Below, piece by piece: positions 3,153 to 6,957 of a stretch of 12,469 nucleotides of DNA (within the stretch, counting starts at the first letter, position 1; each line of letters starts with the position of its first letter). The position numbers and the translations under genes were made by a program. The notes beneath the pieces are model-generated. The model searched no databases. It worked only from the letters and a program-made list of their open reading frames with translations, and was not told the DNA's origin. The stretch covers positions 1 through 12,469 of the forward strand of contig CAKUHV010000044.1 in assembly GCA_934659445.1 (NCBI GenBank), given 5' to 3'. This stretch comes from an uncultured Oscillospiraceae bacterium (GTDB lineage: Bacteria; Bacillota; Clostridia; Oscillospirales; Oscillospiraceae).

Positions 3153-3740
3153 TTACAGTCCGGTCTCCAGGAAGCCGGCGTTGATCAGGCTGGTACGCAG
3201 GGCGTTGAACTGTGCCACTACGTCGTCCGTGCCGGTCGCCGGGGCCACGTAGGCCCCGGCCGTGATGGCTGCGGCAGGGCCGGTAGGACCGGTGGGTCCG
3301 GTGGGACCTGTGGGGCCGGTTTCGCCTGAGGCGCCCGCTGCGCCTGTGGCTCCGGTCGCGCCGATGGGGCCGGTAGGACCCGTGGGACCTGTGGGGCCGG
3401 TTTCGCCTGTGGCTCCCGCTGCGCCTGTGGCTCCGGTCGCACCGACAGGGCCGGCGGGGCCAGTAGGTCCGGTGGGGCCGGCCGCACCGTCAGGTCCCGG
3501 GATCCCCTGCGGCCCCGTAGGGCCAACGCCCCCCGCAGGACCGGGATAGCCCTGTGGCCCGGTAGGACCGGTGGGGCCGGTGGGCCCCGTCCCGGGCAGA
3601 GGGCAGCAGCAGGGCTGAGGCATCGGCGGCGGACAGGGCGGCGGGCACGCCCCCTGACAGGGCGAGCCGCCCCCCATTAGCTGGGCGGTCACAGGCTCCT
3701 GCCTGTTTCCCTCCCACTGAGATGAATAGTAACGCTTCAT
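3153..3740 (-). CDS. Collagen-like (Gly-X-Y) protein, probable spore-surface glycoprotein
   Basis: A 195-residue protein with no signal peptide and no membrane segment. Residues 1-27 are polar and aromatic ([11 protein letters not shown]). Residues 28-46 hold six cysteines among prolines (C28, C32, C36, C44, C45, C46). Residues 52-156 are 35 uninterrupted Gly-X-Y triplets, mostly GPT, GAT, GAA and GET, and contain a 27-residue tandem repeat. The last 39 residues end in an amphipathic helix ([18 protein letters not shown]). Thr-rich triplets are the glycosylated sites in BclA-type exosporium proteins. Lack of export fits assembly on the forespore from the mother cell. I chose the ATG at 3740 because AAAGGAG stands seven bases before it; an upstream in-frame ATG at 3815 has no ribosome site and adds an atypical extension. 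The glycosyltransferase downstream supports glycosylation. A spore-surface location is inferred; a non-spore surface adhesin is less likely without a secretion signal. Confidence 0.85.
3318..3479 (-). repeat. 81-bp tandem repeat inside the collagen-like gene
   Basis: Two adjacent 81-bp units (3399-3479 and 3318-3398) encode 27-residue blocks with the same plan: four GP-containing triplets, then GAT-GAT-GAA-GA(T/S)-GET. The protein units differ at three residues (Ala/Thr, Val/Ile, Thr/Ser). Part of the duplication is nearly identical at the DNA level. Confidence 0.85.
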
Positions 3741-3818
3741 AGCATAGCTCCTTTGGGCGGGGCGCGCCCCGCCAGAGATGGCGGCCCGAAGCGCCGGAGC
3801 GCCCCAGCGCCACATCCC

Positions 3819-3959: not shown

Positions 3960-5453
3960 ATGAAACGATACATCGCCGCCCTGGATCAGGGCACCACCAG
4001 CAGCCGCTGCGTTATCTTCGACTGGCAGGGCCATATCGTGGGCATGGCCCAGCGGGAGTTCACCCAGCTCTACCTCCAGCCCGGCTGGGTGGAGCAGGAC
4101 CCCATGGAGATCTGGTCCAGCCAGTACTCCGTCCTCACCGAGGCTGTGGCCCAGACCGGCATCGAGCCGGAGGAGATCGCTGCCATCGGCATCACCAACC
4201 AGCGGGAGACCACCATCCTCTGGGATCGTCAGACCGGCCGTCCCATCCACAATGCCATCGTGTGGCAGTGCCGCCGCACCGCCCCCCAGTGCGAGGCGCT
4301 GAAGGCGGACACCGGGCTGGTGGAGTACATCAGGGAGCACACCGGCCTGCTCATAGACGCCTATTTCTCCGCCACCAAGATCCAGTGGCTTCTGGACCAT
4401 GTGGACAACGCCCGGCAGCTGGCCCGGGAGGGGCGGCTGCTCTTTGGTACGGTGGACACCTGGCTGCTGTGGAAGCTCACCGGAGGCCGGGTACACCTTA
4501 CCGACTGCACCAACGCCAGCCGCACCATGCTGTTCGACATCCGGCGCCAGTGCTGGGACGAGCACATCTGCCAAGCCCTGAACATCCCCATGAACATCCT
4601 GCCGGAGGTGGCCGACTCCAGCAAGGTGTACGGCACCGTGCAGTTTCAGGGGGCGGAGATCCCCGTATCCGGCATCGCCGGGGACCAGCAGGCCGCCCTG
4701 TTCGGCCAGACCTGCTTTCTGCCCGGGCAGGCCAAGAATACCTACGGCACTGGCTGTTTCCTGCTGATGAACACCGGGGACAGGCTGTACCGCAGCCGGA
4801 ACGGCCTGCTGTCCACCATCGCCGTGCGGCTGAACGGCAGAGTCTCCTACGCTCTGGAGGGCTCCGTCTTCGTGGGCGGGGCGGTGATCCAGTGGGTGCG
4901 GGACGAGCTGCGCTTTTTGAGCGAGGCCCGGGACGCAGAGTACTACGCCTCCAAGGTGCCGGACACCGGCGGGGTGTATCTGGTGCCCGCCTTCACCGGT
5001 CTGGGCGCCCCCTACTGGGATATGTACGCCCGGGGCGCGTTAGTGGGCATCACCCGGGGCACCAGCCGGGAGCACATCATCCGCGCCGCGCAGGAGTCCA
5101 TCGCCTATCAGAGCTATGACCTGGCCGCCGCCATGGAAAAGGACACGGGCATCCCTCTGGCCCAGCTGAATGTGGACGGCGGCGCCAGCCGGGACGGCTT
5201 CCTCATGCAGTTCCAGGCAGACATTCTGAACAAGCCCGTGTGCCGCCCGGTCATCCGGGAGACCACCGCCATGGGGGCCGCCTTCCTGGCCGGTCTGGCC
5301 GTGGGCTTCTGGAGGGATCTGGATGAGCTGCGGGCCGTGCGCCAGCTGGACCGGCAGTTCGTCCCCGCCATGGAGGAGGAGCGCCGCCGCACTCTGTTGG
5401 CAGGCTGGCACAAGGCGGTGGGCCGGTCTCTGGACTGGACCGAACACACATGA
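3960..5453 (+). CDS. glpK: Glycerol kinase
   Basis: A 497-residue FGGY-family sugar kinase, the usual length for GlpK. It phosphorylates glycerol with ATP to sn-glycerol 3-phosphate for glycolysis or lipid synthesis. Diagnostic stretches are DQGTTSSR at 9-16 (phosphate loop), NQRETT at 80-85 (glycerol-contacting R82 and E83), [14 protein letters not shown] (163-176), [10 protein letters not shown] at 241-250 (catalytic base D242), [11 protein letters not shown] (263-273) and [12 protein letters not shown] (406-417). The start at 3960 follows GGGAGG seven bases upstream; an upstream in-frame frame continues to 3897 but lacks a ribosome site. The regulatory loop before GDQQ (about 222-235) has no histidine and no GGKGGTR-like stretch. 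So neither the HPr phosphorylation site of many Firmicute enzymes nor the fructose-bisphosphate site of the E. coli enzyme is visible. No glpF or glpD lies next to it. Confidence 0.97.
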
Positions 5454-5454
5454 C

Positions 5455-5471
5455 AAGGAGCGATCACTTTG
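5455..5471 (+). promoter_or_regulatory. Ribosome binding site deciding a TTG start
   Basis: AAGGAG (5455-5460) lies eight bases before a TTG (5469-5471) and 14 bases before the first in-frame ATG (5475). Spacing favours the TTG. The site overlaps the region right after the glpK stop codon (5451-5453), indicating translation in the same operon. Confidence 0.6.
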
Positions 5472-5771
5472 GACATGCCCTTTATCCCCACCTATTCCTA
5501 CTGGCTCAATGACAACAGCTGGTACGGCAGTCTGGGGCAGGCCCGGTTCTTCATCAGGCCCGCCGCGCTGGACAAGGCAGACCCCGATGAGCCCCTGCGC
5601 ATCCGGCTGGACGTACAGCTGTGGAAGGGCCCCCTGACTCTGGAGCTGAGCCAGGTACTGGCCACAGAGAGCTTTCCCCTGCTGGAGGACAGCGCCGAGA
5701 GCGATCTGAACGCTCTGGCCCTCTGGCTGGAGGAGCAGGCCGAAAAGCTGAACGGGAAAGCCTCCCTGTAA
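5469..5771 (+). CDS. Small protein of unknown function, downstream of glpK
   Basis: A 100-residue protein that I do not recognise. Residues 1-30 are rich in aromatic and polar residues (YSYWLNDNSWYG at 9-20). The middle (43-65) alternates hydrophobic and charged residues, suggesting beta strands (LRIRLDVQLWKGPLTLELS). The C-terminal part (70-96) is an acidic amphipathic helix. There is no signal peptide or membrane segment. It starts 15 bases after the glpK stop, behind a good ribosome site, so it should be co-transcribed with glpK; a role with glycerol metabolism is not shown. If translation starts at the ATG at 5475 the protein has 98 residues. Codon use matches the neighbours. Its TAA stop lies inside one copy of the 10-bp direct repeat that flanks the mobile element at 5777-5918. 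Confidence 0.78.
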   Translation: MDMPFIPTYSYWLNDNSWYGSLGQARFFIRPAALDKADPDEPLRIRLDVQLWKGPLTLELSQVLATESFPLLEDSAESDLNALALWLEEQAEKLNGKASL

Positions 5772-5776
5772 GGGCG
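5767..5776. repeat. Left copy of the 10-bp target-site duplication
   Basis: TGTAAGGGCG at 5767-5776 is repeated exactly at 5919-5928, and the two copies abut the ends of the element at 5777-5918. The neighbouring bases on both sides differ, so the repeat is exactly 10 bp. It contains the stop codon of the upstream gene. Confidence 0.8.
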
Positions 5777-5918
5777 CAATGTCATTCAGTTAAGGGCTTT
5801 GTCATTGCGCGCCAGTCCGCAGACTGGCGCAGCAATCCGTCTTTTCTAACGGATTCCCACGGCAGTGACATCGGTCACTGCCTCGGAATGACTGGTTCTT
5901 CTGACCTGAATGACATTG
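5777..5918. mobile_element. Miniature inverted-repeat element (MITE-like), 142 bp
   Basis: The ends are perfect 13-bp inverted repeats, CAATGTCATTCAG (5777-5789) and its complement (5906-5918). A 10-bp direct repeat flanks them directly. There is no room for a transposase, so it would have to be moved in trans. The inside holds three strong hairpins: 5809-5816/5823-5830, 5834-5840/5849-5855 and 5861-5868/5875-5882. An inner GTCATT/AATGAC pair (5801-5806/5887-5892) encloses them in a cloverleaf-like plan. Similar GTCATTGCG...AATCCGT...ACGGATT...GGAATGAC repeats are, as I recall, common between genes in gut clostridia, but I cannot check copy number. A 9-12-bp duplication is the type made by IS4-group transposases. 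Confidence 0.82.
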
Positions 5919-5928
5919 TGTAAGGGCG
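5919..5928. repeat. Right copy of the 10-bp target-site duplication
   Basis: Identical to 5767-5776. Deleting the element and one copy restores a simple intergenic sequence in which the upstream gene still ends at the same TAA. Confidence 0.8.
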
Positions 5929-5982
5929 GGGCCTTTCCCTACATCTTCCGTCAACAGACGGATCGTCTCAAGGCTTCCTGAC

Positions 5983-6019
5983 AAAAAACGCGGCCCCCGG
6001 CTTATGCCGGAGGCCGCGT
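5983..6019 (-). terminator. Intrinsic terminator of tsf
   Basis: A 14-bp stem (5988-6001 with 6006-6019), GC-rich with a 4-base loop, is followed in the minus direction by TTTTTT (5983-5988). It stands 18 bases after the tsf stop codon. It may also stop transcription arriving from the glpK side, although the plus-strand tail is less T-rich. Confidence 0.93.
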
Positions 6020-6036
6020 CTGCTCTTATTCCGATC

Positions 6037-6957
6037 TTACTTGATCATGGAAGCGACCTCGGCGGCGAAGTCGTCCTCCTTCTTCTCGATGCCCTCGCCA
6101 GTGGCGTAGCGGGTGAAGGCCTTCACGGTGATCTTGCCGCCCAGCTGCTTGGCTACCTCGGCCACGTGCTTCTCTACGGAGATCTTGTTCTCCTTCACGA
6201 AGGCCTGCTGCAGCAGACAGTTCTCCTCGTAATACTTGCCCAGCTTGCCCATGACGATGCCTTCCTTGACCTTGTCGGGCTTGGCGGCCATCTTGGGATC
6301 GTTGGCCATCTGAGCCAGCTGGATCTCCTTCTCCTTGTCCAGGACCTCCTGGCTGACGTCGGACTTGTCCAGATAGGTGGGGTTCATGGCGCAGATCTGC
6401 ATGGCCACGTCCTTGCCCAGCTCGGTGACCTTGTCGGCCTCGATGCCCTCGACCTCCAGGTTGACCAGAACGGCCACCTTGCCGCCCATGTGGATATAGG
6501 GCACGTTCACGCCGTCGGCGTAACGGAAGAAGCGGCGGATCTGGATATTCTCACCGATGGCCAGCACCTTATCGGCAGTGATGTCGGCCACGGTGCGGTC
6601 GGTGCCGGGATAGCGGCAGGCCTTCAGAGCCTCAACATCGGCGGGGTTCTCGTCAGCCACCACGACGGCCAGCCCCATAACGAACTCCTGGAACACCTCG
6701 TTCTTGGCGACAAAGTCGGTCTGGGAGTTGACCTCGATGATCACGCCGATGCCCTTCTCGGTGACGGTGGCAAAGCTCATGCCCTCGGCGGCGATCTTGC
6801 CGGCCTTCTTGGTCTGGGCAGCCATGCCCTTCTCGCGCAGCCACTCGATGGCCTTGTCGAAGTCGCCCTCGGCGGCGGTCAGGGCCTTCTTGCAGTCCAT
6901 CATGCCAACGCCGGTCATTTCGCGCAGCTTCTGTACGTCCTTTGCGGTAATAGCCAT
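6037..6957 (-). CDS. tsf: Translation elongation factor Ts
   Basis: A 306-residue nucleotide-exchange factor that releases GDP from EF-Tu in the cytoplasm. The N-terminal UBA-like domain (about 1-45) carries the signature LREMTGVGMMDCKKAL (11-26). The core starts with VNSQTDFVAKN (76-86), whose Asp-Phe pair contacts EF-Tu. Two core subdomains and the C-terminal part (EGIEKKEDDFAAEVASMIK) follow. Length is normal for Firmicutes. The ATG at 6957 has GGAGGT eight bases upstream. It follows rpsB by 99 bases, the usual gene order, but a strong terminator hairpin lies between them. tsf expression therefore depends on read-through or on an internal promoter that I could not identify. Confidence 0.98.
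   Translation of the reverse strand: MAITAKDVQKLREMTGVGMMDCKKALTAAEGDFDKAIEWLREKGMAAQTKKAGKIAAEGMSFATVTEKGIGVIIEVNSQTDFVAKNEVFQEFVMGLAVVVADENPADVEALKACRYPGTDRTVADITADKVLAIGENIQIRRFFRYADGVNVPYIHMGGKVAVLVNLEVEGIEADKVTELGKDVAMQICAMNPTYLDKSDVSQEVLDKEKEIQLAQMANDPKMAAKPDKVKEGIVMGKLGKYYEENCLLQQAFVKENKISVEKHVAEVAKQLGGKITVKAFTRYATGEGIEKKEDDFAAEVASMIK

What the first reader, a model, noticed from the sequence alone, without database searches (positions are those of the whole stretch)
5767..5928. A 142-bp MITE-like element inserted exactly at a stop codon, with a 10-bp target-site duplication
13-bp perfect inverted repeats sit at 5777-5789 and 5906-5918. The 10-bp TGTAAGGGCG lies directly on both sides (5767-5776 and 5919-5928), with no match beyond. 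The left copy contains the TAA of the small gene, so insertion kept the gene intact. An exact 10-bp duplication at both ends of an inverted-repeat element is unlikely by chance. The duplication length suggests mobilisation by an IS4-type transposase. The element has no coding capacity.
Basis: partly seen in the sequence, partly recalled or inferred. Interest (0 to 1): 0.7.

Follow-up and report, generated by a model that had tools for sequence, protein, structure and literature searches.

The report
Terminator-targeting IS4-type miniature mobile element
A 142-letter piece of mobile DNA without genes of its own, using the same ends as IS4-type jumping genes of related bacteria, landed in a hairpin at the very end of a gene, left that gene intact, and belongs to a group that prefers transcription-stop signals as landing sites.

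Summary
A 142-bp element (5777-5918) with 13-bp perfect inverted ends lies between exact 10-bp copies of TGTAAGGGCG, the only such pair in the window. The reading as an IS4-type MITE is supported. Ten further copies of the same layout were found in 5 genomes (junction searched in 61 of 400); 8 of 10 have their own 10-bp duplication at 8-10 matching bases. The same ends and 10-bp duplications bound 3.4-3.6-kb elements with IS4 transposases, and transposase-free cassettes.

16 of 20 reconstructed sites have an A-run left and a T-run right of the duplication; 11 of 20 are hairpins centred on it. At one site two congeners have an intact terminator where the element sits. The stop-codon position probably follows from a gene-end hairpin. 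(2) The interior is a three-stem palindromic repeat also found alone; one genome holds it 99% identical with and without IS4-type ends.

Untested: copy number, transposase and empty site in the window's own genome, which is not held.

The parts
5767..5776 (+). left copy of the 10-bp target duplication TGTAAGGGCG (contains the TAA stop of the small gene)
5919..5928 (+). right copy of the 10-bp target duplication
5777..5794 (+). left IS4-type end, CAATGTCATTCAGTTAAG (13 bp perfect, 18 bp at 89% with the right end)
   Evidence: pattern CAATGTCATTMAGTTA in 40 of 400 genomes, reversed control 0 in the rows shown
5901..5918 (-). right IS4-type end (inverted copy)
5801..5892 (.). core: three-stem palindromic repeat GTCATTGCG..CGGAATGAC; relatives of it occur without IS4-type ends in other genomes
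5809..5830 (.). core hairpin 1 (GCGCCAGTC/GACTGGCGC)
   Evidence: I10
5834..5855 (.). core hairpin 2 (AATCCGT/ACGGATT)
5861..5882 (.). core hairpin 3 (GGCAGTGAC/GTCACTGCC)
   Evidence: I11
5754..5765 (+). left arm of the target hairpin (GGGAAAGCCTCC)
   Evidence: I6, 83%; flanks joined fold with the rest of the stretch at -25.3 kcal/mol
5928..5939 (+). right arm of the target hairpin (GGGGCCTTTCCC)
   Evidence: I6
5469..5771 (+). small conserved 100-aa gene behind a gene that I recognise as glycerol kinase (not tested by a call); left intact by the insertion; no Pfam match
   Evidence: 53 homologues at E <= 0.001, best 95% identical; P0001-P0003, P0006 and P0015 of the ten looked at end in the same residues; Pfam none

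Best explanation
A non-autonomous IS4-family (IS4-subgroup-like) miniature element. Its two ends are bound in trans by an IS4-type DDE transposase encoded by a relative with the same ends; the element is inserted at the centre of a terminator-like hairpin (A-run, about 7 bp, 10-bp cut zone, about 7 bp, T-run), and the staggered cut gives the 10-bp duplication. In this window the hairpin overlaps the stop codon of a small gene, and because the stop lies in the duplicated stretch the gene survives. The interior is a palindromic repeat module that also exists without these ends. Shown by sequence: ends, duplications, copies, relatives with transposase, target pattern. Inferred: transposition in trans, a transposase in this strain, how the core entered, and any effect on transcription.
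For: Exact ends and duplication. 11 same-layout copies including the window: duplication 10/10 in 5 (window, L011, L015, L144, L150), 9/10 in 2 (L026, L052), 8/10 in 2 (L085, L086); L138 fits 10 of 11 at an 11-bp register and L153 only 8 of 11. In G007 three further copies are 94-97% identical to L150 over the element, at different sites. Same ends with 10-bp duplications on L075 (one end shifted by a base), L080, L082, L107 (3.4-3.6 kb) and L083 (959 bp). Transposases of L075, L082, L107 and L077 pass PF01609 and NF033592 and show D(75-83)D(131-133)E with Y(2)R(3)E(6)K by motif search, the hallmarks given in PMC2266710. Targets: AAA/TTT arms in 16 of 20 sites against 1.6% of locus positions and 7.1% of 721 positions outside long frames; 11 of 20 hairpins at or above the 95th percentile of those 721. 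Congeners G192 and G039 have an intact terminator at the place where L085 sits in G241. The L011 element is missing in three congeners.
Against: The window's own genome is not held, so no second copy, transposase or empty site in that species. Of 11 genomes searched for NF033592, 8 had no match, G282 one below the cut-off, and only G023 and G237 passed; so of the four composite-bearing genomes among them (G241, G282, G379, G007) none shows a transposase over the cut-off, and G285 was not searched. The six orthologous loci (43-54% protein identity) do not test the site. 4 of 20 sites fail the A/T-run test (L011, L086, L107, L138) and 9 of 20 are under the hairpin threshold; L011 and L138 and L107 fail both. 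L081 and L084 have the ends but no duplication; without them the counts are 14 of 18 and 10 of 18. The window hairpin has no T-run tail and the terminator scan does not call it. At the L011 site the left flanks of the congeners do not align up to the junction.
Confidence: 0.92

Rival explanations
1. The core palindrome is the mobile unit, and the IS4-like ends are accidental or decayed neighbours.
For: The core is more widespread than the composite: strict core pattern in 28 of 400 genomes, composite junction in 5 of 61 chosen genomes. A 99% identical core stands without such ends at G007:C24 (L213).
Against: 33 cores without IS4 ends show no clear excess of direct repeats at their boundaries (4-mers 21% against 22% in mismatched controls, 5-mers 12% against 8%, none of 7 or more), whereas in the composites the duplications sit at the IS4-type ends.
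Confidence: 0.04
2. A full-length IS4-type element inserted here and shrank in place by internal deletion; the short form never moved.
For: Full-length relatives with the same ends exist.
Against: In G007 three short copies are 94-97% identical to L150 at other sites, L150 with its own exact duplication; the short layout occurs in 5 genomes.
Confidence: 0.04
3. Not mobile: a host regulatory or terminator hairpin with a chance flanking repeat.
For: Very strong predicted structure, z -8.6.
Against: The end pattern recurs in 40 of 400 genomes with no reversed control; copies elsewhere have their own duplications; the element is absent at the same places in congeners.
Confidence: 0.01
4. On the origin of the composite: all composites descend from one IS4-MITE with a core, and the likeness of cores within a genome is due to later exchange, not to repeated capture.
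For: Similar arm lengths between end and core in the copies read (about 17-27 bp, from the sequences).
Against: The cores of 10 of the 11 copies (L144 was not compared) and of L188 are closer to cores not labelled composite (0.73-0.88) than to composite cores of other genomes (0.70-0.76); but more of the former were available and the labels were loose.
Confidence: 0.4

Closest known systems
IS4 family, IS4 subgroup (PMC2266710)
   Same: Left end fits -AATR--------WTW----; duplication of 10 bp within 10-13; transposases of relatives have the DDE spacing and YREK; [quoted passage not shown] the E. coli IS4 preference AAAN20TTT is recalled, not from a call).
   Different: The window element has no transposase; the relatives with passenger genes are 3.4-3.6 kb, against 1.4-1.65 kb typical in that table.
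IS231 and mobile insertion cassettes of the Bacillus cereus group
   Same: Same logic: IS4-family ends around passenger genes, with or without transposase (PMC2266710 section 6; the cassettes are named in PMC6542083 passages; that they share IS231 ends is recalled).
   Different: Ends here are CAATG, not CAT; the 2008 review had not seen passenger modules outside the IS231 subgroup.
Bacterial MITEs such as RUP, BOX, SPRITE and QMITE (PMC10969869, passages)
   Same: Short, structured, repeated; BOX, RUP and SPRITE are described as inserting into one another.
   Different: The review text holds no mention of IS4, and the passages seen do not describe a preference for terminators as targets.

Membership tests
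MITE | short (<~500 bp), terminal inverted repeats, no transposase | tested here: met
   142 bp, 13-bp perfect ends, no supported frame
MITE | target-site duplication | tested here: met
   exact 10 bp
MITE | several copies in the same genome | tested here: inconclusive
   window genome not held; relatives G007 and G241 have 4 and 3 scored copies
IS4 family, IS4 subgroup | ends -AATR--------WTW---- | tested here: met
   left end CAATG..TTA fits; right end fits AATR only (against PMC2266710 Table 1)
IS4 family, IS4 subgroup | duplication of 10-13 bp | tested here: met
   10 bp here; 10 bp in most relatives scored
IS4 family | autonomous partner with D(60-110)D(100-150)E and YREK transposase | tested here: met
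   in relatives only: L075, L082, L107, L077; none over the cut-off in the four composite-bearing genomes searched
IS4 family | mobilisation in trans by that transposase | not testable with these tools
   needs a transposition assay
IS231-type mobile insertion cassette | IS4-family ends around a passenger gene, no transposase | tested here: not met
   the window element has no passenger gene; L083, L079 and L078 are of that kind
REP/REPIN | palindrome mobilised by a RAYT (Y1) transposase | not tested
   considered for the core alone

The most novel reading that the evidence does not exclude
IS4-type ends have captured a separately occurring palindromic repeat more than once, giving modular miniature elements that insert in the loop of intrinsic terminators. 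Being palindromes placed inside palindromes, they lengthen the terminator hairpin instead of breaking it, so termination may be kept and the host gene unharmed: a safe-harbour strategy for a miniature element.
Probability: 0.3. Interest if true: 0.65.

Novelty: new variant of a known kind. Interest (0 to 1): 0.48.

Why it matters
It gives an IS4-type MITE group of Oscillospiraceae together with larger relatives that encode the transposase, a measured target preference for terminator-like hairpins that may explain why such an element lies exactly at a gene end, and a modular interior shared with a more widespread repeat. It makes testable whether terminators serve as safe sites and whether a palindromic insert keeps termination. 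It also shows passenger-gene and cassette forms, noted in 2008 only for IS231, on elements with IS4-subgroup-like ends.

Tried and rejected
Window's own genome: not held. Orthologous empty site of the window: six loci, 43-54% protein identity, other sequence downstream, uninformative. Phage collection: no match. Rfam on 5400-6300: eight matches, all outside the element and below their gathering scores. A duplication for the core alone: no clear excess. Empty site for L015: no match to its unique flanks in the other six genomes of the genus, only to the core and to another repeat; for L150: none in the one other genome. Whether targets avoid genes in general: inconclusive; frames of 100 aa or more span a duplication copy at 15 of 20 sites, many of them plainly mechanical, so intact genes are claimed only for the window and L085. 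Papers: nine searches gave in their listings no report of IS4-type MITEs aimed at terminators or of the core repeat (one search listed 20 of 37). Beyond listings I saw PMC2266710 (abstract, section 6, passages), PMC10969869 and PMC6542083 (passages). Most subscription journals are not in that library, so this absence is weak. The loose end criterion mislabelled cores (for instance L213, which has no such ends by sight and by the core-only match); its tallies are not used, only identities.

Full report
Observation. The ends are 13 bp perfect and 18 bp at 89%. Over the window this is the only perfect 13-bp inverted pair of element size. The left repeat contains the TAA of a 100-aa gene with 53 homologues; five of the ten looked at end in the same residues. 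The element with its repeats folds at -82.9 kcal/mol (z -8.6).

Copies elsewhere. The window's genome is not held. Through the small gene, loci in records titled Lawsonibacter, Pseudoflavonifractor, Oscillospiraceae or uncultured were found, and 400 genomes drawn from the family of one of them (G002) were searched: 66 of 400 have a DNA match to the element at E <= 0.01, mostly to the interior and with few candidates scored per genome. The end pattern CAATGTCATTMAGTTA occurs in 40 of 400, the reversed control in none of the rows. End and interior joined as in the window were sought in 61 chosen genomes and found in 5. A script over the loci then fetched found 11 such copies including the window: duplications 10/10 in the window, L011, L015, L144 and L150; 9/10 in L026 and L052; 8/10 in L085 and L086; L138 and L153 fail at 10 bp, L138 fitting 10 of 11 and L153 8 of 11 at 11 bp. 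L188 is a further, degraded copy seen by eye, not scored. In G007 three copies are 94-97% identical to L150 over the element, so the short form itself seems to have spread.

Larger relatives. The same ends with 10-bp duplications bound elements of 3403 (L075, one end shifted by a base), 3382 (L080), 3551 (L082) and 3614 bp (L107), and a 959-bp cassette (L083). L075, L082 and L107 encode long IS4 transposases, as does L077, whose ends were not paired here; these four pass PF01609 and NF033592 and show D(75-83)D(131-133)E and YREK by motif search. In L080 the transposase lies in two frames. Passengers are a GNAT protein (L075), a hexapeptide transferase (L080), a LysM protein (L082) and a protein without Pfam match (L107); elements without transposase hold a RelB/ParE pair (L083), a protein with an AraC-type helix-turn-helix (L079) and one without Pfam match (L078). 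Duplications of L079 and L078 are imperfect; L081 and L084 have none. Against the trans model: of 11 genomes searched for NF033592, 8 have no match, and of the composite-bearing ones G241, G379 and G007 have none and G282 one below the cut-off; these are drafts in many contigs and G285 was not searched.

Target. Twenty sites were rebuilt: the 11 composites, L075, L080, L081, L082, L107, L083, L079, L078 and L084. A peaks at 7-10 bases left of the duplication (14 to 17 of 20) and T at 8-12 bases right (11 to 16 of 20). AAA and TTT in both arms: 16 of 20, against 1.6% of locus positions and 7.1% of 721 positions outside long frames. Hairpins centred on the duplication reach the 95th percentile of those 721 in 11 of 20. 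Without L081 and L084, which have no duplication, the counts are 14 of 18 and 10 of 18. L011, L107 and L138 fail both tests; L086 fails the A/T test only. The clearest case is L085: behind the corresponding gene the congeners G192 and G039 have an intact terminator with a T-run, and at that place in G241 a GC-rich stem with T-run is split at its loop by the element; the third congener gave no right-flank match. At the L011 site the element is absent from three congeners, though their left flanks do not align up to the junction. In the window, the joined flanks fold with a hairpin (-25.3 kcal/mol for the stretch) and the filled site keeps the outer stem; the hairpin lacks a T-run tail and the scan does not call it a terminator. 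I take the stop-codon position as a consequence of a hairpin that overlaps the gene end.

Core. The interior (5801-5892) has three stems. A strict form occurs in 28 of 400 genomes, up to 24 copies in one, with no reversed control in the rows. 33 copies without IS4 ends show no clear excess of direct repeats. Some cores lie inside other inverted repeats: 12 of 45, composites included, reach the 99th percentile of mismatched pairs; L016, L124, L126, L127, L132, L136 and L180 are those without IS4 ends. The cores of the copies compared (10 of the 11, and L188) are nearer to cores not labelled composite (0.73-0.88) than to composite cores of other genomes (0.70-0.76). L213 in G007 is a 99% match to the core of L150 that does not extend into the ends. 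Repeated capture, or exchange, is inferred; loose labels and unequal numbers limit this.

Mechanism. Shown: ends, duplications, related transposases, target pattern. Inferred: binding of both ends in trans by an IS4-type transposase and insertion into the hairpin centre with a 10-bp stagger. Whether termination is kept, and whether targets avoid genes in general, is open.

Known frame. PMC2266710 (section 6 and Table 1) gives the IS4-subgroup ends and 10-13-bp duplications, notes target-arm specificity in that subgroup, and had seen passenger genes only in IS231. The AAAN20TTT target of IS4 is recalled; a search for the string found nothing of use. I file the element as an IS4-type MITE. New, as far as the searches named under Tried and rejected show, are this group, the terminator targeting measured here and the modular core.

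Noticed in passing
L083:453-1411 (G135:C10): A 959-bp cassette with the same IS4-type ends and exact 10-bp duplication carries a RelB/ParE-type toxin-antitoxin pair and no transposase, inside a long hairpin target.
   Followed up: partly
L075, L080, L082, L107: IS4-type elements of 3.4-3.6 kb with passenger genes (GNAT, hexapeptide transferase, LysM, one without Pfam match).
   Followed up: partly
L016, L124, L127, L132, L136: Cores without IS4 ends that lie in the middle of other inverted repeats, for example a 21-bp perfect pair in L016; perhaps other MITE families or terminators.
   Followed up: partly
L144:1501-1735 (G285): A 236-bp composite with an exact 10-bp duplication and an enlarged interior with extra sequence.
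   Followed up: no
window 3153-3815, - strand: A 220-aa frame with a long collagen-like GPTGPTG repeat.
   Followed up: no
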